A stretch of 64,000 nucleotides of DNA from Arthrobacter jinronghuae (GTDB lineage Bacteria > Actinomycetota > Actinomycetes > Actinomycetales > Micrococcaceae), in NCBI RefSeq assembly GCF_025244825.1, contig NZ_CP104263.1:3224001-3288000 (forward strand), read 5' to 3'. The notes under the pieces were generated by a model, which ran no database searches, was not told the origin of the DNA, and was given only the letters and a program-made list of their open reading frames with translations. Positions 34,817 through 51,879 of the stretch are shown piece by piece. Each line of letters starts with the position of its first letter. Positions within the stretch are counted from its first letter, which is position 1. Made by a program: the position numbers and the translations under genes.

Positions 34817-35812
34817 TCAAAGTCGGACACGGGCAGCAGACCGTTCACGCAGTAGCCGGCCCATCCATGCGGCGCGGGTCCTGATGGTGCTGGCCGTTAT
34901 CTCACTGTCCGGTGCCAGCTGGTCGTAGCGATGGAAGCCGCCGGCCCACATGTGCAGTTCGGCATCATTACCGGCAGCCCACAAATCCGCAGCGTAGGCG
35001 ACGGTTTCATCACGGAAGACCTCCGCGGTGCCGCACTCGAGAAAAGCCGGCGGCAGGCCGGCGAGGTTCCCCGTCCGTGCTGGTGCCGCATACGGATCCG
35101 TCGCCCGCCGCCCGTGGTCCTGCCCGAGGAGCGCACTCCAGCCAAACCGGTTCGCCTGCCGGTCCCATCCACCCGTGCCGTCAAACTGGCGCAAGGATTC
35201 GGTGGCGTCGCGGTCATCGAGCATGGGGCTTAGCAGAAGCTGTCCCGAAATCCGCGGGCCCCTCCGGTCCCTCGCCATCAAGGCCAGGGATGCCGTGATG
35301 CCGCCTCCAGCACTCTGTCCGGCGACAATCAGCGGCTGTCTGCGAAGGTTGAGCCGTTCCGCCTGGGCAACAGTCCACTCCAGCCCGGCGTAGGCGTCTT
35401 CGCGGGGAAAGGGGTCGGGAAACTCAGGGGCCAGTCGGTACTCGACAGTGACGATGGCGGCATCAAACATCTCAATCCAGTCCAGGAACGCTGTTATCCC
35501 GCTCCAACGGTCTCCTGCCACCATGCCTCCGCCGTGGCTGTGATAGATCAGCGGACCGGTGGGGGTGGGTGTTCCCCTCAAGACGGACAGCCCGATTCGG
35601 CCGCCCTGGTATCCGGGGATCTCATGGTGCTCCGCCACGATTGGCTGGCCCGCGGACTTGAGCAGGTCTGCGACGTCGGACGGAGACGACGTTGATGCCT
35701 GGCGGACCGCTGCCAGCGATTCCATGGTGAAGCCGGCGCCGCCGGCGTACTTGGCCCGGAAGATTTCGGAAATCTGCGGGTCGTAGGGCGGCCGTACCGG
35801 GGTTCCGTTCAT
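34817..35812 (-). CDS. Alpha/beta hydrolase of the hormone-sensitive-lipase (esterase) family
   Basis: A 331-residue esterase. The oxyanion motif HSHGGGMV is at about 91-98, the nucleophile elbow GQSAGG at about 162-167, and the acid and His are expected in the last 90 residues (for example the FHRYDQLAPD segment). A strong AAGGAGAAGG site precedes ATG 35812. It is divergent from mhpB and shares 225 bp of control region with the aromatic cluster. Since the cluster encodes a Baeyer-Villiger monooxygenase, which makes esters, this hydrolase is a good candidate to open them. That is inference from context. Confidence 0.83.
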   Translation of the reverse strand: MNGTPVRPPYDPQISEIFRAKYAGGAGFTMESLAAVRQASTSSPSDVADLLKSAGQPIVAEHHEIPGYQGGRIGLSVLRGTPTPTGPLIYHSHGGGMVAGDRWSGITAFLDWIEMFDAAIVTVEYRLAPEFPDPFPREDAYAGLEWTVAQAERLNLRRQPLIVAGQSAGGGITASLALMARDRRGPRISGQLLLSPMLDDRDATESLRQFDGTGGWDRQANRFGWSALLGQDHGRRATDPYAAPARTGNLAGLPPAFLECGTAEVFRDETVAYAADLWAAGNDAELHMWAGGFHRYDQLAPDSEITASTIRTRAAWMGRLLRERSAARVRL

Positions 35813-35911: not shown

Positions 35912-35964
35912 ATCACATTGCCTCTAGCCAGATGTGATGTAATTCACTAGAATCAACATTCTAG
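35912..35964. promoter_or_regulatory. Divergent control region of the mhp cluster with two inverted repeats
   Basis: ATCACAT (35912-35918) and ATGTGAT (35932-35938) form one inverted repeat. CTAGAA-tcaaca-TTCTAG at 35947-35964 is a second, perfect one, and it contains TAGAAT, a good -10 for mhpB. A repressor on this site would block the promoter. Which regulator binds is not shown; the TetR gene at 47117 is the obvious candidate. Confidence 0.5.
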
Positions 35965-36037: not shown

Positions 36038-36982
36038 ATGACTCTTGCAGTGGCCGCAATGTCCCACGCCCCCTCCTTCGGAAACGTAGATCCGGGCGGA
36101 ACGATTTTTGCTGAAATCAATTCGGCAATTGACGACGTCCGGGCTTTCGTTGAGGATTTCGCGCCGGACGTCACCATCGCGCTGGGACCGGATCACTTCA
36201 ATGGCGTGATGTACGAGATGATGCCCCCGTTCTGCGTAGGTGCGCAGGCCAACGGAGTCGGAGACTGGGGCACCGCTGCCGGCCCGCTGCCCGTTGACAG
36301 CGATACCGCGCGGGAGCTGCACCGACTCATCCTCGAGGACGGTATCGACATCGCCCGGTCCGAACGGCTTCAGGTGGATCACGGGGTACTACAGCCCCTG
36401 GAGTTTGTCTACGGACACGACTTCAAGAATCCGTTTGTACCCATTTTCGTGAACTCTGTGGGGCTGCCGCTCACACCCATGAACCGTGTTCGTGCCTTTG
36501 GCGAAGCAGTGGGCCGGGCCGCGCAGAAACTCGACAAGAAGGTTCTGATCTTCGCCTCCGGCGGGCTATCCCACAACCCTCCCATCCCGGTCTGGGACGG
36601 CGCGTCCGACGAGGTGAAGGAACGGCTCATCCACTTGGAAATGACGCCGGAACAGCGCGAGGTCCGCGAATCCACGATGCTCAACAACATCCGGAAGTTT
36701 GCTGAGGGAAAGGCGACCACCCAGCCCCTCAATGCCGAGTGGGACACCAAGGTGCTCGACGTCTTCCGTGCCGGCGATATGACTGTCGTGGACTCGTGGA
36801 CCAACGAGTGGTTCGGCGCCGAAGGCGGCAGCGGAGCACATGAGGTGCGCACCTGGATCGCTGCTTTCAGCGCCCTGTCCACTGCCGGCAGCTACAGCTT
36901 CCAGGTTGACCGCTACTGGCCGGTTGAAACCTGGGGTGCCGGATTCGGTGTAGTTGCAGCAGTCACGGACAGCGCTGCATGA
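36038..36982 (+). CDS. mhpB: 2,3-dihydroxyphenylpropionate 1,2-dioxygenase (type II extradiol)
   Basis: A 314-residue iron-dependent ring-cleavage enzyme that opens 2,3-dihydroxyphenylpropionate to 2-hydroxy-6-oxonona-2,4-dienedioate. The match to E. coli MhpB runs along the whole chain: MSHAPSFGNVDP at the start, MPPFC near 62, LQVDHGVLQPLEF with His115, and ASGGLSHNPPIP with His179, the same numbers as the catalytic histidines of the E. coli enzyme. GAGGAAA precedes ATG 36038. It is the first gene of a long run of coupled genes, sharing a 4-nt overlap with mhpC. Confidence 0.94.
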   Translation: MTLAVAAMSHAPSFGNVDPGGTIFAEINSAIDDVRAFVEDFAPDVTIALGPDHFNGVMYEMMPPFCVGAQANGVGDWGTAAGPLPVDSDTARELHRLILEDGIDIARSERLQVDHGVLQPLEFVYGHDFKNPFVPIFVNSVGLPLTPMNRVRAFGEAVGRAAQKLDKKVLIFASGGLSHNPPIPVWDGASDEVKERLIHLEMTPEQREVRESTMLNNIRKFAEGKATTQPLNAEWDTKVLDVFRAGDMTVVDSWTNEWFGAEGGSGAHEVRTWIAAFSALSTAGSYSFQVDRYWPVETWGAGFGVVAAVTDSAA

Positions 36983-37845
36983 GCCATCAGCTTGAGTCGC
37001 TGTGGCAGCAGATCGGGGACCTCCCCCATCAACTGTTCTATCTCGAGATCGGGGGCTGGCGTACCCGCGTCCTGTCGGTGGGCGAGGGCAGCGACACCAT
37101 CGTGATGATGGCCGGTACCAGCGGTCACCTCGAGGCCTTCACACAGAACATTCGGGCGCTGGCCCGGACCCACACCGTGATCGCCTACGACTACCCCGGC
37201 CACGGATTCTCCAGTCTGGCAGGAGCCGATCTCGAGATAGCGGACTATGAAAAACACCTGGTCGGGCTGCTGGATGCCCTGAATGTCGACCGGGCACATC
37301 TCTGCGGTGAATCGCTCGGCGGATGGATCGCACTGAAGTTTGCCCAGTCACACGCGGATCGGGTCAGGACCTTGATCCTGAGCGCTCCGGGCGGGCAGAT
37401 CATCAAAACCTCAGCGATGGGTAAGGCGCGTTCGGTCAGCCGCGAGGCCGTCGAGAATCCAACCTTTGCCAACGTCAAAGCGAGGCTGCAGGTAGTCATC
37501 CATGATCCCGAGCTCATCACTGACGAGCTAGTGCACATGCGCCAGGCCGTCTACAGCCGGGAGGGTTTTGCCCGCTCCATGGATCACATCCTGGCCCTGC
37601 AGCAGCCGGAGATCCGCTTCCGCAACCGAGTCACTGAGGAAGATTACGCGGCCCTGACCGTCCCGACTCTGCTCGTGTGGACGGATCATGAGCCCTCGGG
37701 CGGCATCGAGACGGGTGAACGGTTCGCAGCGGCAATACCCGACGGCGAACTGCTGGTTATCCGCAACGCAGCCCACTGGCCCCAGTGGGAAGACCCAGAG
37801 GCCTTCAACGAATGCGCCCTCGATTTCCTGGCAAGAAAGGGGTGA
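36979..37845 (+). CDS. mhpC: Meta-cleavage product hydrolase (alpha/beta hydrolase, MhpC-like)
   Basis: A 288-residue alpha/beta hydrolase. The nucleophile elbow is CGESLGG with Ser112; the acid is likely the Asp in LLVWTDHEPSG (about 236) and the base the His in RNAAHWPQWEDPEAF (about 265). The ring-cleavage product would be split into 2-hydroxypenta-2,4-dienoate and succinate. The ATGA overlap with mhpB couples translation. Identity rests on fold plus position between dioxygenase and hydratase; as a sequence it is less close to E. coli MhpC than MhpB is. Confidence 0.85.
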   Translation: MSHQLESLWQQIGDLPHQLFYLEIGGWRTRVLSVGEGSDTIVMMAGTSGHLEAFTQNIRALARTHTVIAYDYPGHGFSSLAGADLEIADYEKHLVGLLDALNVDRAHLCGESLGGWIALKFAQSHADRVRTLILSAPGGQIIKTSAMGKARSVSREAVENPTFANVKARLQVVIHDPELITDELVHMRQAVYSREGFARSMDHILALQQPEIRFRNRVTEEDYAALTVPTLLVWTDHEPSGGIETGERFAAAIPDGELLVIRNAAHWPQWEDPEAFNECALDFLARKG

Positions 37846-37848
37846 CGG

Positions 37849-38649
37849 ATGTCACCGATTATCCAAAAAATTGCCGACGACCTCTATGCGGCCCGGCAGA
37901 ACCTCACACCGATTGACCACATCCGGCATCAGCTGCCCGGTGGCGATCTGGCTTCCGCCTATGCAATCTCCGAGATCAACACACAACGGCGGGTCCAGGA
38001 GCAGAAGCTTCGGCGTGTTGGCCGCAAAGTCGGCCTGACCAATCCCATGGTGCAAAGAAAGGCCGGTGTGGATCAGCCCGACTACGGCATCATTCTCGAG
38101 GACATGGTTTTCCCGGGAGGCGTGGTCCGTCCGAGATCCGCATTCATCAAACCGAAGATCGAGGCGGAGCTCGCTTTCGTCCTCAAGGAAGACCTGCTCT
38201 CCTCGGACCTCGCTGCCGTTGAAGCTGCCATCGATTACGTGGTGCCCGCGATAGAGCTCGTTGACTGCCGGTACCACAACTACGGAATGAGCATTCTCGA
38301 TACCGTCGCGGACAACGCGGCCTGTGAGGGCGTGGTGACCGGGGCGGTCCGCAAACCTTACGGTGAAATCGACCTCAACGAGGTCGAAATGATCCTGTAC
38401 CGCGGCGACGAGGAAGTGACCCGGGGCATCGGCAGGAATGTCCTGGCCGGTCCGGTCAACGCCATCCAGTGGCTCGCCGAGACATCGCTTCGGATCAATA
38501 AGCCGCTGCGTGCCGGCGAAATCCTACTCTCCGGATCAATCGGCATGATCGTCGATTGGGAGACCGATGTCCCCTACACCGCTGTTTACTCGCACGGATT
38601 CGGTTCCGTGTCAGCCACTCTCGATTCCAAGGATCTACACCATGCCTGA
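37849..38649 (+). CDS. mhpD: 2-keto-4-pentenoate hydratase
   Basis: A 266-residue enzyme that adds water to 2-hydroxypenta-2,4-dienoate to give 4-hydroxy-2-oxovalerate. The family features GRKVGLTNPMVQRKAGVDQPDYG, split here as GRKVGLTN at about 62 and VDQPDYGIILEDM at about 76-88, plus KPKIEAELAF and VPAIELVDCRYHN, carry the metal-binding acidic residues. Length agrees with the E. coli enzyme. It begins 3 nt after the mhpC stop behind AAAGGGG. Confidence 0.9.
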   Translation: MSPIIQKIADDLYAARQNLTPIDHIRHQLPGGDLASAYAISEINTQRRVQEQKLRRVGRKVGLTNPMVQRKAGVDQPDYGIILEDMVFPGGVVRPRSAFIKPKIEAELAFVLKEDLLSSDLAAVEAAIDYVVPAIELVDCRYHNYGMSILDTVADNAACEGVVTGAVRKPYGEIDLNEVEMILYRGDEEVTRGIGRNVLAGPVNAIQWLAETSLRINKPLRAGEILLSGSIGMIVDWETDVPYTAVYSHGFGSVSATLDSKDLHHA

Positions 38650-39094
38650 AGTCACCAGCGAAATACGCGCTGAAATTGAACAGCTTGTCACGGAGCACCA
38701 CTGGCTGCTTGACCACGGGCATGCCGACCGTTTGTACACGCTGTACGCGGAGGACGCGGTGTCCACCGGGCCGCTGGGAACAATGGACGGCCGGGAGGCC
38801 GTGAAGGCCTGGGGCGAACGCCGGGCAAAGATGGATGCGGGGGTCGTCCGGCACTTTTCCGGGGGAACCCGGTTGGCCTTCGAAAACGGCGTCCTTTGCG
38901 GCACCACCTACTACATGACCTTTCGGGACAGTCAGTCCGATCCGCTCCATCCGGCCAGCGTGGGAGAGTTCCGTGAGCAGTACACCCAAGTGGATGGCCG
39001 GTGGCTTATCTATCGCCGTGAGATCGCTCCGATTTTCGGCGCGGCAAACGCCGCTGCCCACGCACAGCGCATAGCCGCAGGAGAGGCTAAATGA
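38642..39094 (+). CDS. NTF2-like (SnoaL-type) protein
   Basis: A 150-residue protein from ATG 38642, overlapping mhpD by 8 nt and the aldolase start by 4 nt. The cone fold is suggested by EHHWLLDHGHADRLYTLYAE, GTMDGREAVKAWGE and VDGRWLIYRRE. This family includes ketosteroid isomerase-like enzymes, dehydratases and small subunits of ring-hydroxylating dioxygenases, as well as non-enzymes. Its place in the middle of a ring-cleavage operon suggests an isomerase or accessory step; there is no counterpart in the E. coli mhp operon. Confidence 0.75.
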   Translation: MPEVTSEIRAEIEQLVTEHHWLLDHGHADRLYTLYAEDAVSTGPLGTMDGREAVKAWGERRAKMDAGVVRHFSGGTRLAFENGVLCGTTYYMTFRDSQSDPLHPASVGEFREQYTQVDGRWLIYRREIAPIFGAANAAAHAQRIAAGEAK

Positions 39095-39837
39095 GTCTCG
39101 GCCAGTCGGCAGCGCCTGTGCTGCTTCACATTGCCACACCATCAATGGCTGCCGCTGAAAACGCGTTGGACGCCGGTTACGACGGCGTCATGCTCGACCT
39201 GCAGCACGGAGAGATCGGACTGGACCAGGCAAGCAACATGCTGCGGTCCATACCCCGAGGCAATGCATACCTGTTTGCCCGCGTGGCCTGCATTGACTCC
39301 GGTGTCATCGGGCGGCTGCTGGACAGCGGCGCCCGCGGAATAGTCGCTCCCACGGTCGAATCCGCGGAACAGGCACAGGCACTGGTATCGGCTACAAAGT
39401 ACCCGCCGCTCGGTCGACGCAGCCTTGGCCCCAGCCGGCCCGCCCTCTACTCCGGAGCCGACTACTGCGCTGCGGGGAACCAAGCTGTATCCACAGTGGT
39501 GCAAATTGAAACCGCTGCCGGTGTTGAAGCAGCAGACCGGATACTCAGTGTGGACGGTGTGGACTCGCTCTACATCGGACCCTCCGACCTGGCGGTCTCC
39601 TACGGCCTACCCGGGCGCCCGGACTGGTCCGACGGCCCGGTTGCCGACGCCGTCGCCCACCTCGCCGAAAGGGCACGGGTCCACGGAGTCAAAGTGGGCC
39701 TGTACTGCAGCGACCCCGCCTTCGCCGCCGGGCAGATACTGCAGACCGGCCTGGACTATGTGGGACTGGGCATCGACCTGATGTTCATCAGCAAACAGGC
39801 CCGCGCCTCCCTCGCGGCTCTCAAGGAGGCATCATGA
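39091..39837 (+). CDS. HpcH/HpaI-family class II aldolase, probable 4-hydroxy-2-oxovalerate aldolase
   Basis: A 248-residue TIM-barrel aldolase. The motifs DLQHG (His39), VQIETAAGVE (Glu140) and IGPSDLAVSYG (Asp166) are the acid/base and metal sites of HpaI-type enzymes. In this context it would split 4-hydroxy-2-oxovalerate to pyruvate and acetaldehyde. E. coli and most mhp clusters use the unrelated MhpE together with an acetaldehyde dehydrogenase MhpF; neither is present here. Overlaps both neighbours by 4 nt. Confidence 0.85.
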   Translation: MSLGQSAAPVLLHIATPSMAAAENALDAGYDGVMLDLQHGEIGLDQASNMLRSIPRGNAYLFARVACIDSGVIGRLLDSGARGIVAPTVESAEQAQALVSATKYPPLGRRSLGPSRPALYSGADYCAAGNQAVSTVVQIETAAGVEAADRILSVDGVDSLYIGPSDLAVSYGLPGRPDWSDGPVADAVAHLAERARVHGVKVGLYCSDPAFAAGQILQTGLDYVGLGIDLMFISKQARASLAALKEAS

Positions 39838-41549
39838 CGGAACAAACCGAAATCCTGATCATCGGAGCGGGACCCACCGGGCTGACGCTGGCCAATCTGC
39901 TGGGCCGCCGGGGCATCCGTACCATCCTCATCGAGGCACGGGACAAGCTCATCGACTACCCGCGGGCCGTTGGCATCGACGACGAGTCGCTGCGCGCCAT
40001 GCAGGGGCTGGGACTGGTGGACAAGGTGCTTGAGCACACTGTCCCCGATCAGCAGATCCGCATCGTCAACGGTGCGGGCAAGATCATCGCCGGAATCAAT
40101 CCAACCACCCGCGAGTTTGGCTGGCCCCGCCGCAACGGATTCGTGCAGCCGCTGGTGGACCAGATCCTCCTGGAAGGCGCACAGCGCTATGACTGCGTCG
40201 AGGTCCGCCTCGGAGCCAAGGCCACCGATGTGGTTCAGGACGCCGACGGAGTCACTGTCACGGTGCATTCCCAAGGCAAAGACTCCTCCATCCGCGCGGA
40301 ATACCTGGTGGGTTGCGAGGGCGGGCGCTCATTCACCCGCCAAAAGCTGGGGATTCCCTTCACCGGCGAGACCCGGCGCCAACGCGGTTTGGTGATCGAC
40401 GTCGCCAATGATCCGCTGGGGACACCCCACGCGGTCTTCGGCGGGGACCCCACCCGGGGATACGCCACCCTAAGCCTGCCGCACGGCATACGCCGGTGGG
40501 AGTTCATGCTGCTGGACGGCGAGGACGACGACCTAATCAACAGCGACGAATTTCTCCATCAACTGCTCCGGGACCATGTGGCGGAGCCGGCCGAGTTGGA
40601 TGTCATCCGCCGCCGCGTCTACGAGCACCACGCGCGCCTTGCGGACCGTTTCCGGGACGGGCGGGTCCTGTTGGCCGGCGACGCCGCCCATGTAATGCCG
40701 GTGGTCGCCGGGCAGGGATGGAATTCCTGCATCCGTGACGCCCTGAACCTTGGCTGGAAGCTGCCGGCAGTTGTCCGAGGGCTGGCCGATGACCGGCTGC
40801 TCGACACCTATGCGGAGGAACGCCGCGACCATGTCAAGGCAATGATCGACCTGTCGGTAGGAATGTCCAAGGTCGTGACGAACCGGAGCAAGGTCACGTC
40901 TGCAGTACGTGACACCGCAGCCGCCGTGATCGACCGCCTGCCAAAACTCAAGTCCTACGTCTCGGGCCAGGGATTCAAACCCATGCCGAAGTACACCCGC
41001 GGCGTGGTCGTCCCGGGAAAGTGGCCGGAGTCGAAGTCGGTGCCCATCGAGGACGGAGTGCAGCCGGGCACGGGCACGCTGTTCCCGCAGCCGCACGTCC
41101 GCACCGCTGATGGAGAGGATGTCCTGCTCGACGACGTCACGGGTGACGGATGGCGGATCTTCGTCTGGAACAACAACCCGGAGCATTTCCTTTCCGCGGA
41201 TTCCCTCGCTGCCCTGACCGCTTTGGACGCCACCCTCGTCCATGCGGTGCCGGCAACCCAGCTCCGTTGGACCGCCGCCCATGCAACCCCGGGCGTGTGT
41301 GTGGTCGGAGACGCTTCGGGAATGTTGAAGTCCTGGTTCCATGCGCGTCCGGTTTCCGTCGCGATCGTCCGGCCTGACCACGTCATTGCCGCCGAATGCC
41401 TGGCTCAGGACCTGAACCGTACTCTGCAGAAGGTCTTCGGCAGTGCCTATCTGCTCCCGGCAGATGGCACTCCACTCCCCGCGGGGTCCGGCCCCGGGAC
41501 AGATTCTTCACACTTCGTTTCCTCAAGGAAGAGAGAACTCACGTCATGA
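39834..41549 (+). CDS. mhpA: 3-(3-hydroxyphenyl)propionate hydroxylase-type FAD monooxygenase
   Basis: A 571-residue single-component hydroxylase of the PheA/TfdB/MhpA family. FAD is bound by GAGPTG at residues 11-16, the DG motif region is VGCEGGRSFTRQKLG, and the GD motif is LLAGDAAHVMPVVAGQGWN at about 280-298. It inserts a hydroxyl ortho to the phenol group to make the catechol for MhpB, using NAD(P)H and O2. A C-terminal thioredoxin-like domain of about 170 residues is as in MhpA. Overlaps the aldolase stop and the binding-protein start by 4 nt each. Confidence 0.9.
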   Translation: MTEQTEILIIGAGPTGLTLANLLGRRGIRTILIEARDKLIDYPRAVGIDDESLRAMQGLGLVDKVLEHTVPDQQIRIVNGAGKIIAGINPTTREFGWPRRNGFVQPLVDQILLEGAQRYDCVEVRLGAKATDVVQDADGVTVTVHSQGKDSSIRAEYLVGCEGGRSFTRQKLGIPFTGETRRQRGLVIDVANDPLGTPHAVFGGDPTRGYATLSLPHGIRRWEFMLLDGEDDDLINSDEFLHQLLRDHVAEPAELDVIRRRVYEHHARLADRFRDGRVLLAGDAAHVMPVVAGQGWNSCIRDALNLGWKLPAVVRGLADDRLLDTYAEERRDHVKAMIDLSVGMSKVVTNRSKVTSAVRDTAAAVIDRLPKLKSYVSGQGFKPMPKYTRGVVVPGKWPESKSVPIEDGVQPGTGTLFPQPHVRTADGEDVLLDDVTGDGWRIFVWNNNPEHFLSADSLAALTALDATLVHAVPATQLRWTAAHATPGVCVVGDASGMLKSWFHARPVSVAIVRPDHVIAAECLAQDLNRTLQKVFGSAYLLPADGTPLPAGSGPGTDSSHFVSSRKRELTS

Positions 41550-42544
41550 CCACTCGAACCCTCCGCTTGCTAGGCAGCGGCGCGCTCGCCGCCGCACTCA
41601 CCCTGACCGGTTGCGCATCCGGTTCCATCTCCGGAGGCGCGGACACAGGTGCAGGCGGCAGTGCATCCGACTCCGAGCTCCGCGACGTCAAGATTGGCCT
41701 GTTCCCCTCGTCGGCTGTGGCTGCTATTCAGCTGGGCGTTAACAAGGGCTATTTCGAAGAGGAAGGCCTGAACCTCGAAATGCTCCTGGGACAGGGAAGC
41801 GCCGCCCAGTTGCCCTCGTTGAGTTCCGGCAGCCTGGACTTCATGCTCTCGAGCCCCACCACCCCACTGGTGGCCACGGCCCAGGGGCTCGACTTGAAGA
41901 TCGTCTCCGGATACGCCAGCAATCGGCCGGAAATGGTCGAAGACTCCGTCGCGGTGATGGTCGGTCCCAACTCCGACATTCACAGGGCGAAGGACCTGGA
42001 GGGCAAAACAGTCTCCATCAACGCCCTGGGCAGTATCGGGGACATCGGTATCCGCGAAGCCGTTGAGCTCGACGGCGGCGACCCCGACAAGGTGACCTTT
42101 GTGCAGCTCGGTTTCAACGAGGTCGGAGCCCAGCTTGAGAGCGGCCAGATCCAGGCCGGAATGGTGGGCCCTCCGTTCATGCAGCAGATCACCGCTGACG
42201 GCGGTGCTGTCATTAGCGACTTTATCCAGGAGGCCGGGCTCGGCGGCGCGGAACTGGTCATCGCTTCCAGCGGCGCCCTCGTCGAACAGGATCCGGAGGT
42301 GGTGGAAAGTTTCATTTCCGCCCTGGACAAGACCCTCAGCTACGCAGAAGAGCATCAGGACGAGGTGCGGGACCTACTGCCCGAAGTTCTCGGAACGTCC
42401 CCCGAGATGGCAGCCAAAACAGACTTCATTGCGTGGAACGCCCACCTGGATGTTGACGCCCTGAAACAGTTTGCCGATCTCATGACGAAACACGGCATCG
42501 TCGAGACGCGCCCGGACCTTGATGCCACGGTCTGGAGCAAGTAA
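41546..42544 (+). CDS. NitT/TauT-type ABC substrate-binding lipoprotein
   Basis: A 332-residue lipoprotein from ATG 41546, behind AAGGAAGAGAG and overlapping mhpA in ATGA. The lipobox is LTGC with Cys23. The mature part is of the NMT1/SsuA class (VKIGLFPSSAVAAIQLGVNKG, then DLEGKTVSINALGSIGD). It is related to the orphan at 17429. Its coupling to mhpA and to the permeases and ATPase downstream makes it the capture protein for the aromatic growth substrate. Direct ligand evidence is absent. Confidence 0.87.
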   Translation: MTTRTLRLLGSGALAAALTLTGCASGSISGGADTGAGGSASDSELRDVKIGLFPSSAVAAIQLGVNKGYFEEEGLNLEMLLGQGSAAQLPSLSSGSLDFMLSSPTTPLVATAQGLDLKIVSGYASNRPEMVEDSVAVMVGPNSDIHRAKDLEGKTVSINALGSIGDIGIREAVELDGGDPDKVTFVQLGFNEVGAQLESGQIQAGMVGPPFMQQITADGGAVISDFIQEAGLGGAELVIASSGALVEQDPEVVESFISALDKTLSYAEEHQDEVRDLLPEVLGTSPEMAAKTDFIAWNAHLDVDALKQFADLMTKHGIVETRPDLDATVWSK

Positions 42545-42626
42545 CGGCGGAGGCAGGCGGCCTCTCCGTGGGAACGGCCGCCCGCCCTGGGCACGATCAC
42601 AAAAACTGAAAGGGGAGCTGGTCATC

Positions 42627-43451
42627 ATGACCAACCCGACGACATCGGTGCCGCTTGGCGCCCGACGTTCATTGCTCTGGCTCAGGTTTGGGCCGGCGCT
42701 TCTGGGAACCTGCGGGATCCTCGGATTCCTAGGCATCTGGCAGGCGGCTTCCGTCACGGGGATTGTTGACCCCCGGCACCTGCCGCCGCCCACGGTGGTC
42801 TTTGCACGGTTCTTCGAGAACCTGGCCTACACGCAGTTCTGGGTAGCCACAGGACACACGTTGCGTGCCTGGATACTGGGCGTCCTGATTTCCTCGGTGG
42901 GCGGCCTGGTCCTGGGCGTCATCATCGGCTCCAGCCGGTTCCTAGTCCGGGCAACGCATTCAACCATCGAATTCCTGCGTCCCATTCCGGCCGTGGCGCT
43001 GATCCCCCTCGCTGCGCTGCTTTTCGGCCCCCGCCTCGGATCCGAGCTGATGATTATCATTTACGCCTGTTTCTGGGTCGTACTGATTCAGGTGCTGTAC
43101 GGCATTGCAGACCTTGACCGGGTTGCAATGGACACAGCTCGGACCCTGCGCCTGAGTTTCCTCCAGCGGGTCCGGTACGTCGTTTTCCCGACGCTGCTTC
43201 CGTACCTCATGACCGGCCTGCGCCTGGCCGCCACGGTGGCCCTGGTCCTTGCCATCAGTGTTGAGCTGATTGTCGGCACACCGGGTCTTGGCCAGGAGGT
43301 TGCCTTTGCCCAAATCAACGGATCGGCACCGGCCATCTATGCCCTGATCATCACCAGTGGCCTGCTGGGAATCGCAATCAACTCACTCATGCGGTTCATC
43401 GAGCGTAAATCCCTTTTCTGGCATGAGTCCGTACGCGGAGGAGCAGCGTGA
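42627..43451 (+). CDS. NitT/TauT-type ABC permease, first
   Basis: A 274-residue membrane protein from ATG 42627 with AAAGGGGAG 9 nt upstream; the frame open back to 42519 overlaps the previous gene and is rejected. Six membrane segments are visible. The EAA-type cytoplasmic loop is DTARTLRLSFLQRVRYVVFP, typical of SsuC and TauC. It starts 82 nt after the binding protein and overlaps the second permease by 4 nt. Confidence 0.87.
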   Translation: MTNPTTSVPLGARRSLLWLRFGPALLGTCGILGFLGIWQAASVTGIVDPRHLPPPTVVFARFFENLAYTQFWVATGHTLRAWILGVLISSVGGLVLGVIIGSSRFLVRATHSTIEFLRPIPAVALIPLAALLFGPRLGSELMIIIYACFWVVLIQVLYGIADLDRVAMDTARTLRLSFLQRVRYVVFPTLLPYLMTGLRLAATVALVLAISVELIVGTPGLGQEVAFAQINGSAPAIYALIITSGLLGIAINSLMRFIERKSLFWHESVRGGAA

Positions 43452-44221
43452 TATCAACACTGAAGAGAGCCGGATACTTTCTGGGGCTCCCCCTGATCCT
43501 GCTGGCAGCATGGATCGGCTACACGTCCGTTCAGACAAACTTCTTCATCCCCGAACCGGCTGTGCTGGCCGACCGTTTTTTCCACATCTGGTTTTCCGAA
43601 CGCCTGATGTCCGATGTGCTCCCCAGCATTGGCAGGCTTCTTGCGGGGCTGGGGCTGTCCATCGTCGCCGGCGTCACCATCGGTGTGATTATCGGCTACG
43701 TGCGTTGGATCCGGTGGCTGTTCGAGCCGCTCTTCGAGTTCATTCGAGCGGTTCCCTCTACCATCCTCATCCCGGTGCTCCTGCTGCTGATCGGGATCAA
43801 TGACGCCATGAAGATCACCCTGATCGTCTGCAGTTGCATCTGGCCTATTCTGCTGAACACCGTTGCCGGTGTGACGTCCATCGATGAGGTCCTGCAGAAC
43901 ACAGCGAAAGTCATAGGGCTCAAAAAGCTGGACCGCATGCGCTATCTCGTGCTCCCGGCCGCTTCGCCGCAGATCATGGCGGGAATCCGCCAGAGCCTGG
44001 CCGTGGCGCTCATCCTGATGGTGGTTTCGGAGATGTTCGCGTCCACCGACGGGATCGGCCACTGGACAATCAATTTCCAGAACCGCGTCGCCATACCTGA
44101 AATGTGGAGCGGTATTTTGCTGCTGGGCATTATTGGCGTCGTCCTTTCAGTGGTTTTCCACTGGATTCAGAAACGAATTCTTGCCTGGTACGAAGGATTG
44201 AAGGAGAACGAAAATGACTAG
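43448..44221 (+). CDS. NitT/TauT-type ABC permease, second
   Basis: A 257-residue SsuC/TauC-like permease starting with GTG 43448, overlapping the first. Six membrane segments; EAA loop NTAKVIGLKKLDRMRYLVLP. Two different permease genes in one system imply a heterodimeric channel, which is less common than the homodimer of SsuC. Overlaps the ATPase by 8 nt. Confidence 0.87.
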   Translation: MISTLKRAGYFLGLPLILLAAWIGYTSVQTNFFIPEPAVLADRFFHIWFSERLMSDVLPSIGRLLAGLGLSIVAGVTIGVIIGYVRWIRWLFEPLFEFIRAVPSTILIPVLLLLIGINDAMKITLIVCSCIWPILLNTVAGVTSIDEVLQNTAKVIGLKKLDRMRYLVLPAASPQIMAGIRQSLAVALILMVVSEMFASTDGIGHWTINFQNRVAIPEMWSGILLLGIIGVVLSVVFHWIQKRILAWYEGLKENEND

Positions 44222-45047
44222 TGGATCCCAGCAGGTCCGGCTCAGCGTAAAGCGGGTCCAGAAGATTTACCAGACAGGATCAGGCACCCGGTTCGAAGCG
44301 GTTCGGTCCCTGACCTTCGATCTGCATGACGGAGAATTCGCCTGCCTGGTGGGCCCGTCCGGAAGCGGGAAGACAACGCTTCTTAAGTGCATCGCCGGCC
44401 TGATGCAGACAACCTCGGGTGAGGTGGCGCTGGATGGGTCCCCGGTCTCCGGACCCGCCGCTGGCATGGCCGTTGTGTTTCAGGAATACGGGCGCAGCTT
44501 GTTCCCGTGGATGACAGTTGCCGCCAATGTGGGTCTTCCGCTGAAAACGGGCGGGGTCCCCAAGTCCGAGCGTGCTGGACGTGTGCGCGAGGCCTTGGAA
44601 GCCGTGGGACTCAGCGCTGCCGGAGCGAAGTATCCCTGGCAGCTCTCGGGCGGAATGCAGCAGCGTGTGGCGATTGCCCGCGCCGTCGCTGCCCGGCCGA
44701 GTGTGCTGCTGATGGATGAGCCCTTCGCCGCCGTCGATGCCCAGACGCGTGCCGAGCTTGAGGACCTGGTCCGCCGAATCTGGAAAGAACACAACATGAC
44801 CATCCTGTTCGTGACCCACGACATCGATGAGTCCGTGTACCTGGCTGAACGCGTGCTGGTCCTTTCAAGCTCGCCCACCGTAATCCAGAACGACATCAAG
44901 ATTGATCTGCCGGAGGAACGCGACCAACTGGTGACCCGCTCGGCGCCGCGCTTTGCCGAACTGCGCGCGGAGGTCTACGAACGAGTGCAGTTCGCCAAGA
45001 CCAACATCAACGGCGAGGTTGAGCCGGCCAGGCAGGTGCTCGCATGA
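44214..45047 (+). CDS. NitT/TauT-type ABC ATP-binding protein
   Basis: A 277-residue ATPase with Walker A GPSGSGKTT, signature LSGGMQQR and Walker B VLLMDEPFAAVD, followed by VTHDIDESVYLAERV, the usual SsuB/TauB series. AAGGAGAA precedes ATG 44214. Energises the importer formed with the three genes upstream. Its stop overlaps the monooxygenase start in ATGA, so transport and the BVMO are made together. Confidence 0.9.
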   Translation: MTSGSQQVRLSVKRVQKIYQTGSGTRFEAVRSLTFDLHDGEFACLVGPSGSGKTTLLKCIAGLMQTTSGEVALDGSPVSGPAAGMAVVFQEYGRSLFPWMTVAANVGLPLKTGGVPKSERAGRVREALEAVGLSAAGAKYPWQLSGGMQQRVAIARAVAARPSVLLMDEPFAAVDAQTRAELEDLVRRIWKEHNMTILFVTHDIDESVYLAERVLVLSSSPTVIQNDIKIDLPEERDQLVTRSAPRFAELRAEVYERVQFAKTNINGEVEPARQVLA

Positions 45048-47023
45048 GCGCCGCCGGGGTGCGCTCCGTGCAGGCTGCCGCCGATGACTTGTTCTGGCAG
45101 GACACTTACGAACCGGTCATCGAGTCGGATGAGGAACTTCTGCGGATTGTCGAAGGGGCCGACCTCCCGGCGCTCCTTGCGGCCCTGGCAGCCGCCACGG
45201 GAGACACAACCATCCTTACACCGGACCTGCGCCCGCCGCTGGTTCCCGTTGATACCGTCAACCACCCCCACGGCGGGATGACGCCCGACCAACAAGAACG
45301 GGGGCGGCGCACGGCCCTCAGCGCGTTGCGCCGTCTGCGCGACGAGGAAATCACCAGCGTGGGTATCCTCTCCGCGGACGACACCAACACTATTCTTGAG
45401 TTCCTCTGCAATGGACACAGCGAGTGGACCGGCATGCTGCAGCACGAGCTTGACCTGGCACCCAACAAAGGCGGCGCCCCGCAATGGCGCTTTGAGGACA
45501 TCGCCGACGGGCGGGACTTCTCGGTGCTTATCGTCGGCTCGGGTGTAGCAGGCATTGCCGCGGCACATCGGTTCAGCCAAGCCGGCGTTCCTCTGACAAT
45601 CATCGAGGCCGGAGACCGCTTGGGCGGCACCTGGCAGAAAAACCGGTATCCCGGAGTACGCCTGGACACACCGACCTTTGGCTACTCATACTCTTTTGCG
45701 CAGCGCGCCGACTGGCCCCATCAGTTCGCCCAGGGGTGTGAAATCCGGGAGTATCTCGAAACAGTGGCGCGCAGGGCAGGCTTGGATGAAAGCATCGAGT
45801 TTGGCAGCCGTCTGGTTCGGGCCGAGTGGATCGAATCGGCACGCGTCTGGCGAGTGACCACCCGGAGCGGAGACGGCGGCGAGAAAACGCGTGAGTTCAA
45901 CGCGGTTATCAGCGCGTGCGGCCAACTGGACATTCCCAATATTCCGGATTTCCCCGGACAGGACGCGTTCACCGGCATTGCCATGCATTCCCAGGACTGG
46001 GACGAATCCGTGGACTGGCGCGGAAAGCGGGTAGCTGTCATCGGCACCGGTGCCAGCGCGTACCAGATTGTCCCCGCCGTCTGTGATGACGTTGACAGCT
46101 TGGTGGTCTTCCAGCGCAGTGCACCATGGATGCTGCCCGCACCGAACTACCACGATGGAATGAGTGAGACATTCTCATGGCTGGCGCGCAAAGTGCCGCA
46201 CTACGCCCAATGGTTCCGACTTTGGGTCCTGATCCTGGGAATCCCCGGCCGGTTCCACACGGTCCGTGCCGAAAGCGGCTGGGAGGGCGCACCTCTGAGC
46301 GTGTCACGGAAAAACCAGGAGGTCAGGGAGGAACTGACCCGTATTCTCACCGAGCAGTTTGCCGGACATCCAGAGCTGCTCAAGCATGCAATCCCTGTAT
46401 ACCCGCCGGGGGCCAAGCGGATGCTGCGGGACAACGGTGTCTGGGCCAAGGCCCTCACTTCCGCCCACACCACGCTCGCTACGTCCCCAATCCGTGAGTT
46501 CACGCCCAATGGCATCGTGACTGAAGACGGCACCGAACACGCCGTCGACATCATCGTCTACGCCACCGGATTCCGCCCTTCCGAGTACCTCGAAGGAATG
46601 GAGATTCTCGGCCGCGGCGGGCACGAAATCCATGACGTGTGGGAAGGGGACGCTCGTGCGTACAACGGAGTCACCGTCCCGGGATTCCCGAACTTCTTTA
46701 TGGTCTACGGACCCAACGTTGGCGGGGTCGTGGCCGGAAGCCTCCACTTTATGCTTGAGAGGGCAGGCGAATATGCCCTCAAAGCGGTCCGCGAACTTCT
46801 TGAACGTCGGGCAAGCGCGCTCGACGTCAAGCAGGCTGCGCTTGAACGGTTCACGGCATGGGTGGACAGCGAAAACAGGCAAATGGCCTGGGGACAGCCC
46901 TATGTGCGCACCTGGTACCAGAACAGCGCCGGCCGCGTATCCCAGATTTGGCCATTCACCAATATCGAATACTGGGACGCAACCGAATCAATCGACCCGG
47001 AGGATTATGAGTTCCTCGCCTGA
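45044..47023 (+). CDS. Baeyer-Villiger monooxygenase resembling 4-hydroxyacetophenone monooxygenase
   Basis: A 659-residue type I Baeyer-Villiger enzyme. FAD is bound by GSGVAG at 165-170; the family fingerprint FxGxxxHxxxWD is exact at 309-320 (FTGIAMHSQDWD); NADPH is bound by GTGASA at about 335. The 150-residue N-terminal extension is unusual for most BVMOs but is known from 4-hydroxyacetophenone monooxygenase. The enzyme would insert oxygen next to a ketone carbonyl to make an aryl ester. Its coupling to the ABC ATPase by ATGA places it in the aromatic cluster. True substrate is inferred. Confidence 0.86.
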   Translation: MSAAGVRSVQAAADDLFWQDTYEPVIESDEELLRIVEGADLPALLAALAAATGDTTILTPDLRPPLVPVDTVNHPHGGMTPDQQERGRRTALSALRRLRDEEITSVGILSADDTNTILEFLCNGHSEWTGMLQHELDLAPNKGGAPQWRFEDIADGRDFSVLIVGSGVAGIAAAHRFSQAGVPLTIIEAGDRLGGTWQKNRYPGVRLDTPTFGYSYSFAQRADWPHQFAQGCEIREYLETVARRAGLDESIEFGSRLVRAEWIESARVWRVTTRSGDGGEKTREFNAVISACGQLDIPNIPDFPGQDAFTGIAMHSQDWDESVDWRGKRVAVIGTGASAYQIVPAVCDDVDSLVVFQRSAPWMLPAPNYHDGMSETFSWLARKVPHYAQWFRLWVLILGIPGRFHTVRAESGWEGAPLSVSRKNQEVREELTRILTEQFAGHPELLKHAIPVYPPGAKRMLRDNGVWAKALTSAHTTLATSPIREFTPNGIVTEDGTEHAVDIIVYATGFRPSEYLEGMEILGRGGHEIHDVWEGDARAYNGVTVPGFPNFFMVYGPNVGGVVAGSLHFMLERAGEYALKAVRELLERRASALDVKQAALERFTAWVDSENRQMAWGQPYVRTWYQNSAGRVSQIWPFTNIEYWDATESIDPEDYEFLA

Positions 47024-47087
47024 ATGCGGCTCCGGGGCCGGCGCCGCGGCTACAAAGGGCAAGATCGGAATAACGTATCGTCGGCGT

Positions 47088-47097
47088 GTAGTACTAC
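47088..47097. promoter_or_regulatory. Palindrome before the internal TetR gene
   Basis: GTAGTACTAC is a perfect 10-bp palindrome 19 nt upstream of the regulator start. Such a site could give the TetR gene its own autoregulated promoter inside the long operon. Confidence 0.35.
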
Positions 47098-47116
47098 GGA
47101 TCGAGAGAGGAGGGAA

Positions 47117-47767
47117 ATGACCGTGACAAGGAGAAGCCGCACGCATCAGTCCACTCCCAGCAACGAGCAGGCGATTTTGGATGCAGCCCTGACCCTGGCC
47201 GTGACTGCCGGCTACGAGGGAACCACCATGGCAGAGGTGGCACGCCTGTCCGGGCTGCCGGTGGGATCCGTCTACTGGCACTTCAATAACAAGGAACAGC
47301 TCTTTTCGGAGCTGATCGATTACTGCTTCGAAACATGGAAAGCGGACCACACCGGCCCCACCAACCGCGACCTGCTCCGCCGCAGCATTGCCGGATCCGC
47401 CGGCGGGTCGGTAAATCCGGAAAACAAGGCTGAGGCGTTCTGGATTTTGGCGCTGCTCTTCGCACTCGAAAAGCGGCTGACCGGCAACCTGGCCCGTGAA
47501 CGGTACTTGGAAGTCCGCAAGCAGATGTTCGAGTTGATGGTCGAGCGGGTGGAACCGCAGATCCCGGACTCGGTGCTTGCCGTGGACCCCGAATTCGGCC
47601 GGAAAATGGTGGTGCTGGGCCGGGCACTTACGGATGGTTTCTACATCGCCGCGTCCTCAGGCGACGATATCGATTTTCTAGAGTTTGCCGATCTCTCCGC
47701 CTCGGCGGTGGAGGCACTTATAGCCCGGCGGGCCGCCGCTGTTGCTGCCGACGAGGAGAAACAATGA
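47117..47767 (+). CDS. TetR-family regulator of the aromatic cluster
   Basis: A 216-residue TetR protein from ATG 47117, behind a strong GAGAGGAGGG site; the frame open back to 47024 has no better start. The helix-turn-helix covers about 18-62 with MAEVARLSGLPVGSVYWHFNNKEQLF. The C-terminal helical domain (70-215) would bind an effector. It lies 93 nt after the BVMO and 4 nt over the SDR. Probably represses the cluster and responds to the aromatic substrate or an intermediate; no direct evidence. Confidence 0.9.
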   Translation: MTVTRRSRTHQSTPSNEQAILDAALTLAVTAGYEGTTMAEVARLSGLPVGSVYWHFNNKEQLFSELIDYCFETWKADHTGPTNRDLLRRSIAGSAGGSVNPENKAEAFWILALLFALEKRLTGNLARERYLEVRKQMFELMVERVEPQIPDSVLAVDPEFGRKMVVLGRALTDGFYIAASSGDDIDFLEFADLSASAVEALIARRAAAVAADEEKQ

Positions 47768-48480
47768 CAGAAGTACTGAAAAGAGCAGCCGTGGTTGTGG
47801 GCGGCGGCTCGGGGATCGGTGCAGCCGTGGTGCGGGACCTTTCGTCGTACGGGTATCGGGTTGCAGCACTTTCGCCCTCCGGGCGGGCCGCAGAGCTGGC
47901 CCGGGAGCACGGAGGCGTTGGCCTGACCGGCTCCAACAGGTCAGTACAGGATCTGCAGTCCATTGTTGACCTGGCCCTGACGGAGTTTGGCCGGATTGAC
48001 GCAGTGATCAACGGGACCGGCCACGGGGCGTCCGGCCCGGTCCTGGATCTGTCGGATGCCGATTGGGAAGATGGAATGGACGGGTTCCTGATGAACGTGG
48101 TGCGCATGGCCCGCATTGTCACCCCGTATTTTGAGAAGGCCGGCGGCGGGTCGATAGTGAACATTTCGACAAGTTCACCCCTTGAACCAAACCCGCGCTA
48201 CCCGGTTTCCGCCGTGTTCCGCGCCTCTCTGGCGTCTTTTACCAAGCTCTACACGGACGAATTCGGGCCAGCGGGGATCCGAATGAACAACGTTCTGCCT
48301 GGATACACGAAGGAGGATCCAAGCACTGTGCCGCCCGAGTGGACTCAGCGGATCCCCTTGCGGCGGGCAGCCAGCACCCAGGAAATAGCCCAGGTGGTGC
48401 GGTTTCTGGCCGGCCAAGAGTCCAGCTACGTGACGGGCCAGAATATCCGTGTGGACGGCGGAGTCACCCGCGCCGTGTAA
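47764..48480 (+). CDS. SDR-family protein with Ser/Arg in place of the Tyr/Lys pair
   Basis: A 238-residue SDR fold, overlapping the TetR stop by 4 nt. The cofactor motif GGGSGIGAAVV is at 13-23 and GRIDAVINGTG near 76. The strand IVNISTSS and the segment SAVFRASLASFTK align with ordinary YxxxK segments, placing Ser149 and Arg153 at the Tyr and Lys positions. A Tyr occurs at 146, not 149. So the enzyme, if active, uses another mechanism. It may act on an alcohol or ketone of the aromatic side chain. Confidence 0.83.
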   Translation: MTEVLKRAAVVVGGGSGIGAAVVRDLSSYGYRVAALSPSGRAAELAREHGGVGLTGSNRSVQDLQSIVDLALTEFGRIDAVINGTGHGASGPVLDLSDADWEDGMDGFLMNVVRMARIVTPYFEKAGGGSIVNISTSSPLEPNPRYPVSAVFRASLASFTKLYTDEFGPAGIRMNNVLPGYTKEDPSTVPPEWTQRIPLRRAASTQEIAQVVRFLAGQESSYVTGQNIRVDGGVTRAV

Positions 48481-48539: not shown

Positions 48540-49214
48540 TCAGCTCCCTGCGGACTCTTCGGCTATGCCTGAGTCCAATACCACCCGCACCGTGGTCTCG
48601 TAGTGCTCCCGCAGCAGCCGGACCAGCTCATCGGCATGCCGGCCCAAAGCCGCATTCAGTATTGCCCGGTGCTCCCCCTCCACGTCCCGGCTGCCGGGCT
48701 CCACGTGGGGAGCCGCCCAGCAGCGGTACAGCTCGGTGGAATCGGAAAGATCAGATGCGAGCTTTAGCATCGGCTGGCACGCACAGGCCTCGAGCAACTT
48801 GAGGTGGAACGCCTTATGCGCCTTCTGCCATGCGGCATCCACGTGCCCCGGGTCCTCGGCTGAACGCCGCGGTATGCGTGCAAGTCGGTGATGCACGGCG
48901 ATGAGCTCGGATTCCCACGCTACATCCCCCCGGCTAAGGGCCAGTCTGGCGGCCAGCCCCTCGGTGACGCACCGCAGCTCGGTCAGATCCGAAAGCTCCT
49001 GCAGATTAAGGTCACGTACGAAAAAGCCCCGATTGGGCTTTGTGGTCACCAGGCCGTCTCCGGCCAGGCGGGCCAGGGCCTCGCGGACAACCGTGCTGCT
49101 GGTGCCCAACACTGCTGCCATCGCGACCGGTTGAAGACGCACGCCCGGCCCCCATTCGCCTCTCAGGATCTGCTCGCGTATCTGGCCCACTACGCGGTAT
49201 CCGGTACTCGCCAC
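48540..49214 (-). CDS. GntR-family (FadR-type) regulator
   Basis: A 224-residue regulator starting at GTG 49214; GAGGGAGA lies 5 nt upstream. The winged helix (1-70) shows RVVGQIREQILRGEWGPG and STVVREALARLAGDGLV, and the C-terminal FCD domain (about 80-215) carries the Asp/His metal positions in WQKAHKAFHLKLLEAC and GEHRAILNAAL. Divergent from the second ring-cleavage module, it probably represses it and binds an organic acid effector. Confidence 0.9.
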   Translation of the reverse strand: MASTGYRVVGQIREQILRGEWGPGVRLQPVAMAAVLGTSSTVVREALARLAGDGLVTTKPNRGFFVRDLNLQELSDLTELRCVTEGLAARLALSRGDVAWESELIAVHHRLARIPRRSAEDPGHVDAAWQKAHKAFHLKLLEACACQPMLKLASDLSDSTELYRCWAAPHVEPGSRDVEGEHRAILNAALGRHADELVRLLREHYETTVRVVLDSGIAEESAGS

Positions 49215-49288
49215 TGCATCTCCCTCGTCCGAATTCCGCCTAAACCTACACCGGGCCTACCCCCGATAGTTAAATAGTATTTTATTTG

Positions 49289-49318: not shown

Positions 49319-49376
49319 TGTGACCTGTCACACACATATGAGTTTGTTTTCCCGGAACACCGAAAAAAGGACCGCC

Positions 49377-51870: not shown

Positions 51871-51879
51871 GGAGCACTC

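What the first reader, a model, noticed from the sequence alone, without database searches (positions are those of the whole stretch)
36038..48480. Meta-cleavage operon that carries its own ABC importer and a Baeyer-Villiger monooxygenase
Eleven of thirteen genes overlap or abut: MhpB, MhpC, MhpD, NTF2-like, aldolase, MhpA, binding protein, two permeases, ATPase, BVMO, then TetR and SDR. Classical mhp operons use a major facilitator transporter (MhpT) and have no BVMO. Here uptake, side-chain ketone oxidation, ring hydroxylation and ring cleavage are linked in one transcript, suggesting a pathway for an aryl ketone or phenylpropanoid-like compound that I do not recognise as described.
Basis: partly seen in the sequence, partly recalled or inferred. 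Interest (0 to 1): 0.75.

Follow-up and report, generated by a model that had tools for sequence, protein, structure and literature searches.

The report
Aryl-ketone breakdown operon with importer
A soil-type bacterium carries a conserved block of genes that probably imports an aromatic ketone, cuts it at the ketone and opens the resulting rings for food; the exact compound is still unknown.

Summary
In detail: 13 co-directional genes at 36038-48480; 10 of 12 junctions overlap or abut, two are gaps of 82 and 93 nt. The aldolase is HpaI-type; no MhpE or MhpF passes its cut-off in the genome. The unit is larger than described: a GntR-flanked module downstream (FAH hydrolase, second MhpA-like hydroxylase, glyoxalase-type dioxygenase; 48540-52752) and a divergent esterase probably belong to it. 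A palindrome at 35947-35964, unique in the 3.64 Mb genome, lies before mhpB; it recurs exactly in 10 of 12 close MhpB loci and 0 of 40 divergent ones. BVMO is in the cluster in 9 of 12 close loci and 0 of 40 controls, the importer in 8 of 12 and (distantly) 1 of 40. In 395 family genomes BVMO and the glyoxalase-type dioxygenase occupy the same 30. In Nocardioides the mhp core, importer, FAH, second hydroxylase, BVMO and a carboxylesterase form one run. Most likely: import of a hydroxyaryl ketone, Baeyer-Villiger oxidation, ester hydrolysis, then two meta-cleavage branches. Substrate undetermined. Boldest reading: a two-ring (dihydrochalcone-like) ketone split into a phenol and a phenylpropionate. 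New variant of a known kind.

The parts
34817..35812 (-). Abhydrolase_3 (hormone-sensitive-lipase-like) esterase, divergent from mhpB; candidate hydrolase for the BVMO ester
   Evidence: Pfam PF07859 2.8e-45; divergent homologue (57-58%) beside mhpB in L039 and L040. Role inferred.
35925..35953 (+). promoter-like hexamers whose second hexamer overlaps the palindrome
   Evidence: consensus scan, 9 of 12; number of such sites in the region (4) not above shuffles (3.1, sd 1.4)
35933..35947 (+). CRP/GlxR-like TGTGA-N6-TCAC (weak; resemblance recalled)
   Evidence: TGA invariant in six aligned upstream regions, TGTGA in four, TCAC in four; no binding test
35947..35964 (.). palindrome CTAGAAT-N4-ATTCTAG, proposed TetR operator
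   Evidence: only exact CTAGAAN6TTCTAG site in the 3.64 Mb genome; expected 0.01 per window at 1 mismatch; conserved near mhpB in relatives
36038..36982 (+). MhpB-like LigB-type extradiol dioxygenase
   Evidence: NF009910 431.2 bits, cut-off 291; D114, H115, H179 present
36979..37845 (+). MhpC/BphD/HsaD-like C-C hydrolase
   Evidence: S112, D236, H266
37849..38649 (+). MhpD-like 2-hydroxypentadienoate hydratase
   Evidence: PF01557; NF008461 202.9 bits, below its cut-off of 350
38642..39094 (+). SnoaL_4/NTF2-like protein, role unknown
   Evidence: PF13577 1.8e-15
39091..39837 (+). HpcH/HpaI-type aldolase
   Evidence: PF03328 7.1e-29; HpaI 137.5 bits, below cut-off 368.8
39834..41549 (+). MhpA-like FAD hydroxylase
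   Evidence: NF004831 552.5 bits, cut-off 546
41546..42544 (+). NMT1/SsuA-like substrate-binding lipoprotein
   Evidence: PF09084 1.6e-30; LTGC lipobox
42627..43451 (+). ABC permease 1
   Evidence: PF00528
43448..44221 (+). ABC permease 2
   Evidence: PF00528
44214..45047 (+). ABC ATPase
   Evidence: PF00005
45044..47023 (+). type I Baeyer-Villiger monooxygenase with ~150-residue N-terminal extension
   Evidence: FTGIAMHSQDWD at 309, GGTWQKNRYPGVRLD at 194; the best PDB BVMOs match from about residue 155-160 on
47117..47767 (+). TetR-family regulator
   Evidence: PF00440
47764..48480 (+). SDR dehydrogenase, possibly carbinol to ketone
   Evidence: PF13561; role inferred
48540..49214 (-). GntR/FCD regulator, probably of the downstream module
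   Evidence: PF07729, PF00392; role inferred
49377..50231 (+). FAH-family hydrolase
   Evidence: PF01557 3.9e-65; 72% homologue directly after mhpA in G480
50260..51870 (+). second MhpA-like FAD hydroxylase
   Evidence: homologue next to a BVMO in nine other genomes
51880..52752 (+). glyoxalase-type (class I) extradiol dioxygenase
   Evidence: PF00903, catechol 2,3-dioxygenase-like; H136, H191/192 and E242 fall at the ligand positions of 1mpy in the alignment (ligand positions recalled)

Best explanation
A TetR-controlled catabolic operon for a hydroxyaryl ketone. Steps: (1) the ABC importer takes up the ketone or its carbinol; (2) the SDR interconverts carbinol and ketone; (3) the BVMO inserts oxygen next to the carbonyl to give an ester; (4) an esterase (divergent Abhydrolase_3 here, a carboxylesterase next to the BVMO elsewhere) splits it into a phenol and an acid; (5) one product is ortho-hydroxylated by the MhpA-like enzyme, cleaved by MhpB and taken through MhpC, MhpD and the HpaI-type aldolase to pyruvate and an aldehyde; (6) the phenolic product goes through the second hydroxylase, the second extradiol dioxygenase and the FAH hydrolase. 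Shown here: gene content, catalytic motifs, conserved order, co-occurrence, a unique and conserved palindrome. Inferred: every reaction, the substrate, co-transcription and TetR binding.
For: Gene families and motifs. Order conserved in four other Micrococcaceae genomes. In G485 (Nocardioides) the run FAH - second LigB-type enzyme - palindrome - MhpB-C-D-SnoaL-Ald-MhpA-SBP-perm-perm-ATP-FAD hydroxylase-BVMO-carboxylesterase-TetR-SDR is on one strand; in G480 MhpB-C-D-SnoaL-Ald-MhpA-FAH-FAD hydroxylase-BVMO. BVMO and the glyoxalase-type dioxygenase occupy the same 30 of 395 genomes. BVMO 0 of 40 in divergent MhpB loci. BVMO relatives occur with a carboxylesterase family found in 19 genomes' neighbourhoods and a 4-phenol oxidase found in 25 genomes, all within the 30: the enzyme order of known bisphenol F (PMC12724174, passages) and, without the oxidase, acetophenone (PMC9618137, passages) routes.
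Against: No substrate or activity is shown. One close locus (G592) has the MhpB-to-MhpA core, TetR, SDR and palindrome but no BVMO in about 44 kb, and only weak scattered SBP (27%) and ATPase (38%) matches; in G135 core and BVMO are about 40 kb apart. Importers are not exclusive to this type: control G391 has a distant one about 11 kb from mhpB. The window genome has no 4-phenol oxidase or HpaB homologue. G485 lacks the glyoxalase-type enzyme in the stretch read, and G480 shows no second dioxygenase there. The co-occurrence counts pool several BVMO clades, used thresholds set after seeing the lists, and are not corrected for kinship. If BVMO and esterase removed the whole side chain, an MhpC step that needs a 3-substituted catechol would have no obvious substrate.
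Confidence: 0.5

Rival explanations
1. Mono-aryl ketone route as in 4-hydroxyacetophenone or acetophenone catabolism: BVMO plus esterase turn a hydroxyacetophenone or hydroxypropiophenone into a diphenol, and the two ring-cleavage modules serve alternative substrates.
For: Several BVMO relatives are named 4-hydroxyacetophenone monooxygenase by JGI or NCBI; esterase adjacency; a 4-phenol oxidase within 20 kb of a BVMO in 24 of 25 genomes that have it; AcpAB precedent.
Against: MhpA and MhpB pass cut-offs for phenylpropionate enzymes, and MhpC-type hydrolysis suits a catechol that still carries a side chain; two ring-cleavage modules are more than one diphenol needs.
Confidence: 0.22
2. Flavonoid or isoflavone catabolism: the second hydroxylase and glyoxalase-type dioxygenase attack the A-ring as FdeE/FdeC or IfcA/IfcB do, and BVMO and Mhp enzymes finish the remainder.
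For: Same enzyme classes as ifcA/ifcB and fdeE/fdeC (PMC11069340, passages); a homologous hydroxylase-FAH-dioxygenase set (42-51% identity) on a plasmid of a lentil-associated Rhizobium.
Against: None of the 13 operon genes or the four downstream-module genes matched a cupin or Rieske family such as IfcD1/D2 or FdeD; FdeE/FdeC and IfcA/IfcB sequences were not fetched, so there is no direct comparison.
Confidence: 0.13
3. An ordinary 3-hydroxyphenylpropionate operon into which an unrelated importer and BVMO have drifted.
For: MhpA and MhpB pass 3HPP cut-offs; G592 has the core without BVMO; a distant importer near one ordinary MhpB locus.
Against: BVMO and importer are kept under purifying selection in the same place across genera and in another order; 0 of 40 divergent MhpB loci have the BVMO; the core itself differs (SnoaL, HpaI-type aldolase, palindrome, each 0 of 40).
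Confidence: 0.12

Closest known systems
Classical mhp operon of E. coli (mhpR, mhpABCDFE, mhpT; recalled)
   Same: MhpA-, MhpB-, MhpC- and MhpD-like enzymes; MhpA and MhpB pass curated cut-offs
   Different: HpaI-type aldolase; no MhpE or MhpF above cut-off in the genome; ABC importer, BVMO, SDR, SnoaL and TetR in the operon
Actinobacterial 3HPP-type operons with MhpB at 33-47% identity (40 loci examined)
   Same: MhpB with MhpA-, MhpC- or MhpD-like neighbours in most
   Different: 0 of 40 have BVMO, SnoaL, HpaI-type aldolase or the palindrome; 1 of 40 (G391) has a distant NMT1-type importer, found only when its stretch was extended
bpfABCD of Sphingobium yanoikuyae DN12 (PMC12724174, passages read)
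   Same: aryl ketone - BVMO - alpha/beta hydrolase logic
   Different: PCMH-type two-component oxidoreductase first; no Mhp module in the passages read; no such oxidase found in the window genome (a VAO-type query)
acpAB of Rhodococcus rhodochrous GD02 (PMC9618137, passages read)
   Same: BVMO plus esterase proposed for an aryl ketone in an actinobacterium
   Different: two-gene cluster; phenol handled elsewhere
fde (Herbaspirillum) and ifc (Variovorax) flavonoid clusters (PMC11303751, PMC11069340, PMC8552027, passages read)
   Same: group A FAD hydroxylase plus glyoxalase-type ring dioxygenase
   Different: their cupin or Rieske partners not seen here; the word Baeyer does not occur in the ifc paper's main text
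Rhodococcus antarcticus plasmid unnamed1 (L076)
   Same: SBP-perm-perm-ATP-BVMO in the same order, 30-56% identity
   Different: beside cupin, FAH and maleylpyruvate-isomerase genes instead of an Mhp module

Membership tests
type I Baeyer-Villiger monooxygenase | fingerprint FxGxxxHxxxW(P/D) and second motif [AG]GxWxxxx[FY]P[GM]xxxD (motifs recalled) | tested here: met
type I Baeyer-Villiger monooxygenase | oxidises a ketone to an ester | not testable with these tools
   needs an enzyme assay
classical mhp operon | MhpA and MhpB equivalogs | tested here: met
   552.5 vs 546 and 431.2 vs 291
classical mhp operon | MhpC and MhpD equivalogs | tested here: not met
   MhpD best 202.9 vs 350; MhpC best listed model HsaD 116.8 vs 400 (25 of 33 models shown, no MhpC model among them)
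classical mhp operon | MhpE aldolase and MhpF acetaldehyde dehydrogenase | tested here: not met
   none above cut-off in G000; none of the 14 control genomes passed the cut-offs either, so the negative is weaker than it looks
classical mhp operon | MFS transporter MhpT in the operon | tested here: not met
   ABC importer instead
BVMO/esterase aryl-ketone route (HAP, Acp, Bpf type) | BVMO with esterase in the same cluster | tested here: inconclusive
   carboxylesterase beside BVMO in G485 and a carboxylesterase family in 19 BVMO genomes; in the window only a divergent Abhydrolase_3
fde/ifc flavonoid clusters | FAD hydroxylase plus glyoxalase-type dioxygenase | tested here: met
   (class level only)
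fde/ifc flavonoid clusters | cupin (IfcD) or Rieske (FdeD) partners | tested here: not met
   none among the genes scanned
TetR operator | palindrome bound by the cluster's TetR | not testable with these tools
   position and conservation only

The most novel reading that the evidence does not exclude
The island degrades a two-ring aryl ketone of dihydrochalcone type. The BVMO inserts oxygen between the carbonyl and one ring; the esterase then yields a phenol, consumed by the second hydroxylase/dioxygenase/FAH branch, and a hydroxyphenylpropionate, consumed by the Mhp branch. This would be an oxidative, importer-coupled alternative to hydrolytic cleavage of such plant compounds, with one ring-cleavage module per half.
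Probability: 0.2. Interest if true: 0.72.

Novelty: new variant of a known kind. Interest (0 to 1): 0.52.

Why it matters
It defines a meta-cleavage operon type that is conserved across actinobacterial families and separable from ordinary 3HPP operons by gene content and by a rare regulatory palindrome. It predicts an uptake-coupled oxidative route for aromatic ketones, gives a native setting to a group of BVMOs that are otherwise named by similarity only, and makes the substrate question testable with a short compound panel.

Tried and rejected
Rejected: that the operon is a plain 3HPP operon. Rejected: that BVMO and Mhp core always go together; 21 of the 30 BVMO genomes have no close MhpB, so the BVMO's tighter partner is the second dioxygenase. 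Corrected on re-checking: I had taken the importer to be absent from all 40 control loci; extending one truncated stretch (G391) showed a distant NMT1-type importer (SBP 22%, permeases 36%, ATPase 54%) about 11 kb from mhpB. Only that one stretch was extended; six of the 40 reach less than 8 kb on one side of mhpB. Not settled: flavonoid origin of the second module. The SBP has only distant solved relatives, thiamine-pyrimidine and nitrate types, so it gives no ligand clue. The genome-contig scan with the BVMO returned only a near-identical strain. A naringenin/Herbaspirillum/BVMO paper search returned nothing; PMC4440368 held none of the searched terms. Structure prediction and fold search were not used, since the families were already clear.
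Full report
Setting. The window is positions 3224001-3288000 of a single-contig 3.64 Mb genome. A 99%-identical BVMO locus is in Arthrobacter sp. zg-Y238. GC is 0.61-0.64 in the 2-kb bins from 36 to 52 kb and 0.63-0.70 elsewhere in the window. MhpB homologues of 60% identity or more are in 9 of 395 family genomes, so the cluster is patchy.

Anatomy. Searches confirm the thirteen genes. Ten of twelve junctions overlap or abut; the exceptions are 82 nt (SBP-permease) and 93 nt (BVMO-TetR). Catalytic residues are in place: MhpB D114/H115/H179, MhpC S112/D236/H266, BVMO fingerprints at 194 and 309 (the residue and motif assignments are recalled). MhpB and MhpA pass curated cut-offs for 3HPP enzymes; MhpC, MhpD and the aldolase pass none of the models listed. 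MhpC is about equally close to HsaD, BphD and MhpC structures. The genome has no match above cut-off to TIGR03215 (acylating acetaldehyde dehydrogenase) or TIGR03217 (4-hydroxy-2-oxovalerate aldolase), but none of the 14 control genomes passed either cut-off. Downstream, behind a GntR/FCD regulator, lie a FAH hydrolase, a second MhpA-like hydroxylase and a glyoxalase-type extradiol dioxygenase that keeps residues at the iron-ligand positions of catechol 2,3-dioxygenase. Upstream, a divergent Abhydrolase_3 esterase shares the intergenic region.

Regulation. A palindrome CTAGAAT-N4-ATTCTAG lies at 35947-35964. It is the only exact CTAGAAN6TTCTAG site in the genome and is expected 0.01 times per window with one mismatch allowed. 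Among the nine family genomes with close MhpB, eight have an exact site upstream of mhpB and the ninth (G359) has one mismatch. All 14 hits in the 1.35 Mb of loci held are such sites; they stand for eight genomes, several loci being duplicates and one (L115) having been fetched by the pattern itself. Outside the family it is exact in G485 (about 70 bp before mhpB) and in G592 (about 100 bp before a TetR gene and 1.5 kb before mhpB), and not found in G480. That makes 10 of 12. It overlaps a promoter-like hexamer (such hexamers are no commoner there than in shuffles).

Conservation of the operon. The order is kept in G172, G279, G151 and G126 at 68-91% protein identity with pN/pS 0.09-0.29. In G359 FAH and the second hydroxylase lie between SDR and BVMO. 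In a class-level set of 394 genomes, besides the window's own, three had MhpB at 57-63%. All three have MhpB-C-D-SnoaL-Ald-MhpA. G485 (contig length equal to that of Nocardioides gilvus) continues SBP-perm-perm-ATP-hydroxylase-BVMO-carboxylesterase-TetR-SDR, with FAH and a second LigB-type dioxygenase (51% to MhpB) just upstream; the glyoxalase-type enzyme was not found in the stretches read. G480 continues FAH-hydroxylase-BVMO, without a second dioxygenase in the stretches read. G592 has no BVMO in about 44 kb, and only weak scattered SBP (27%) and ATPase (38%) matches. Of the 12 close loci, BVMO is in the cluster in 9 (G000, G232, G172, G279, G151, G126, G359, G485, G480); G104 has a BVMO of another clade about 1 kb from the SDR-TetR pair and 4 kb from mhpB; G135 has core and BVMO about 40 kb apart; G592 has none. 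The importer is in 8 of 12. Two of the twelve (G000, G232) are one species.

Contrast. I took the neighbourhoods of all 23 divergent family MhpB loci at E<=1e-40 (33-45% identity) and of the next-best 17 of 47 divergent loci of the class set (43-47%). None of the 40 has a BVMO, SnoaL, HpaI-type aldolase or the palindrome at the thresholds used. None showed the SBP in the stretch first read, but one stretch (L130, G391) began inside ABC genes; extending it showed an NMT1-type importer (SBP 22%, permeases 36%, ATPase 54%) about 11 kb from mhpB, so importers are 1 of 40. L138, L175 and L183 have ATPase homologues alone. Six of the 40 stretches reach less than 8 kb on one side and only L130 was extended.

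Co-occurrence. In the same 395 genomes, BVMO homologues at E<=1e-200 are in 30, the glyoxalase-type dioxygenase at E<=1e-100 in 30, and the sets are identical. In 27 both lie on one contig, 24 of these within 30 kb and the other three at 32, 96 and 110 kb. Hypergeometric P is 1e-45 without kinship correction, and the thresholds were set after seeing the hit lists. A 4-phenol-oxidase-type flavoprotein (VAO family) at E<=1e-200 is in 25 genomes, all within the 30, and within 20 kb of a BVMO in 24. Recurrent neighbours there include carboxylesterase, HpaB, flavin reductase, luciferase-type monooxygenase, MmgE/PrpD, MFS and LysR genes. The window genome lacks the VAO and HpaB homologues. The BVMO tree puts the Mhp-operon BVMOs of the window and its four syntenic relatives, with three database proteins, in one clade of nine rows (support 100/99; one row is a duplicate), apart from the G359 one and from the VAO-linked clades, so the co-occurrence test pools paralogous groups.

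Wider distribution. Ten contig lengths occur in both 120-row lists of BVMO and MhpB homologues, among them contigs of Lysinimonas soli, Nocardioides nematodiphilus and Nocardioides gilvus and anonymous contigs of 13.6-97.8 kb (compared by eye). This suggests, without showing order, that the pair is also linked in Microbacteriaceae and Nocardioidaceae.

Reading. The pairings BVMO-esterase, BVMO-second hydroxylase (adjacent in nine other genomes: G359, G245, G274, G060, G148, G225, G082, G485, G480) and importer-BVMO (also on a Rhodococcus antarcticus plasmid) fit an imported aryl ketone that is oxidised to an ester and hydrolysed, after which the phenol is taken by the second module. The Mhp module is present in a subset, as expected of a branch for the other half. 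Two hydroxylases and two unrelated ring-cleavage dioxygenases, in Nocardioides a second LigB-type one where the glyoxalase type was not found, are the main argument for two rings. This is inference; no substrate was tested.

Literature. Ten searches listed no operon of this composition, judged from the listings shown and from passages of nine papers; most subscription literature is not held. Precedents for parts: BVMO plus hydrolase on 4,4'-dihydroxybenzophenone (PMC12724174), BVMO plus esterase proposed for acetophenone (PMC9618137), hydroxylase plus glyoxalase-type dioxygenase on isoflavones (PMC11069340).

Verdict. Observation confirmed, interpretation partly supported, unit larger than described, substrate open; a new variant of a known kind.

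Noticed in passing
17429-18442 (-) and 15811-17424 (-): A second NMT1-type substrate-binding protein lies directly beside an acyl-CoA ligase, possibly a separate uptake unit.
   Followed up: no
L054 (G104) and L102 (G135), upstream of mhpB: The palindrome starts 44-48 bp before mhpB here, closer than in the window; TetR-SDR is divergent from mhpB in G104 and about 40 kb away, beside a BVMO, in G135. G135's contig length equals that of Sinomonas sp. R1AF57.
   Followed up: partly
L076 6199-11902: A Rhodococcus antarcticus plasmid carries SBP-perm-perm-ATP-BVMO in window order beside cupin, FAH and maleylpyruvate-isomerase genes: the importer-BVMO block may be a movable cassette.
   Followed up: partly
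L078 8826-12894: Rhizobium sp. NZLR1 plasmid p5 has homologues (42-51%) of the second hydroxylase, FAH and glyoxalase-type dioxygenase together, with no BVMO hit in the stretch fetched.
   Followed up: partly
L052 16387-17535: A flavin reductase domain and a GntR/FCD regulator domain in one ORF of a VAO-linked cluster.
   Followed up: no
L169 10473-11396: A second LigB-type dioxygenase (51% to MhpB) next to FAH in Nocardioides, perhaps in place of the glyoxalase-type enzyme.
   Followed up: no
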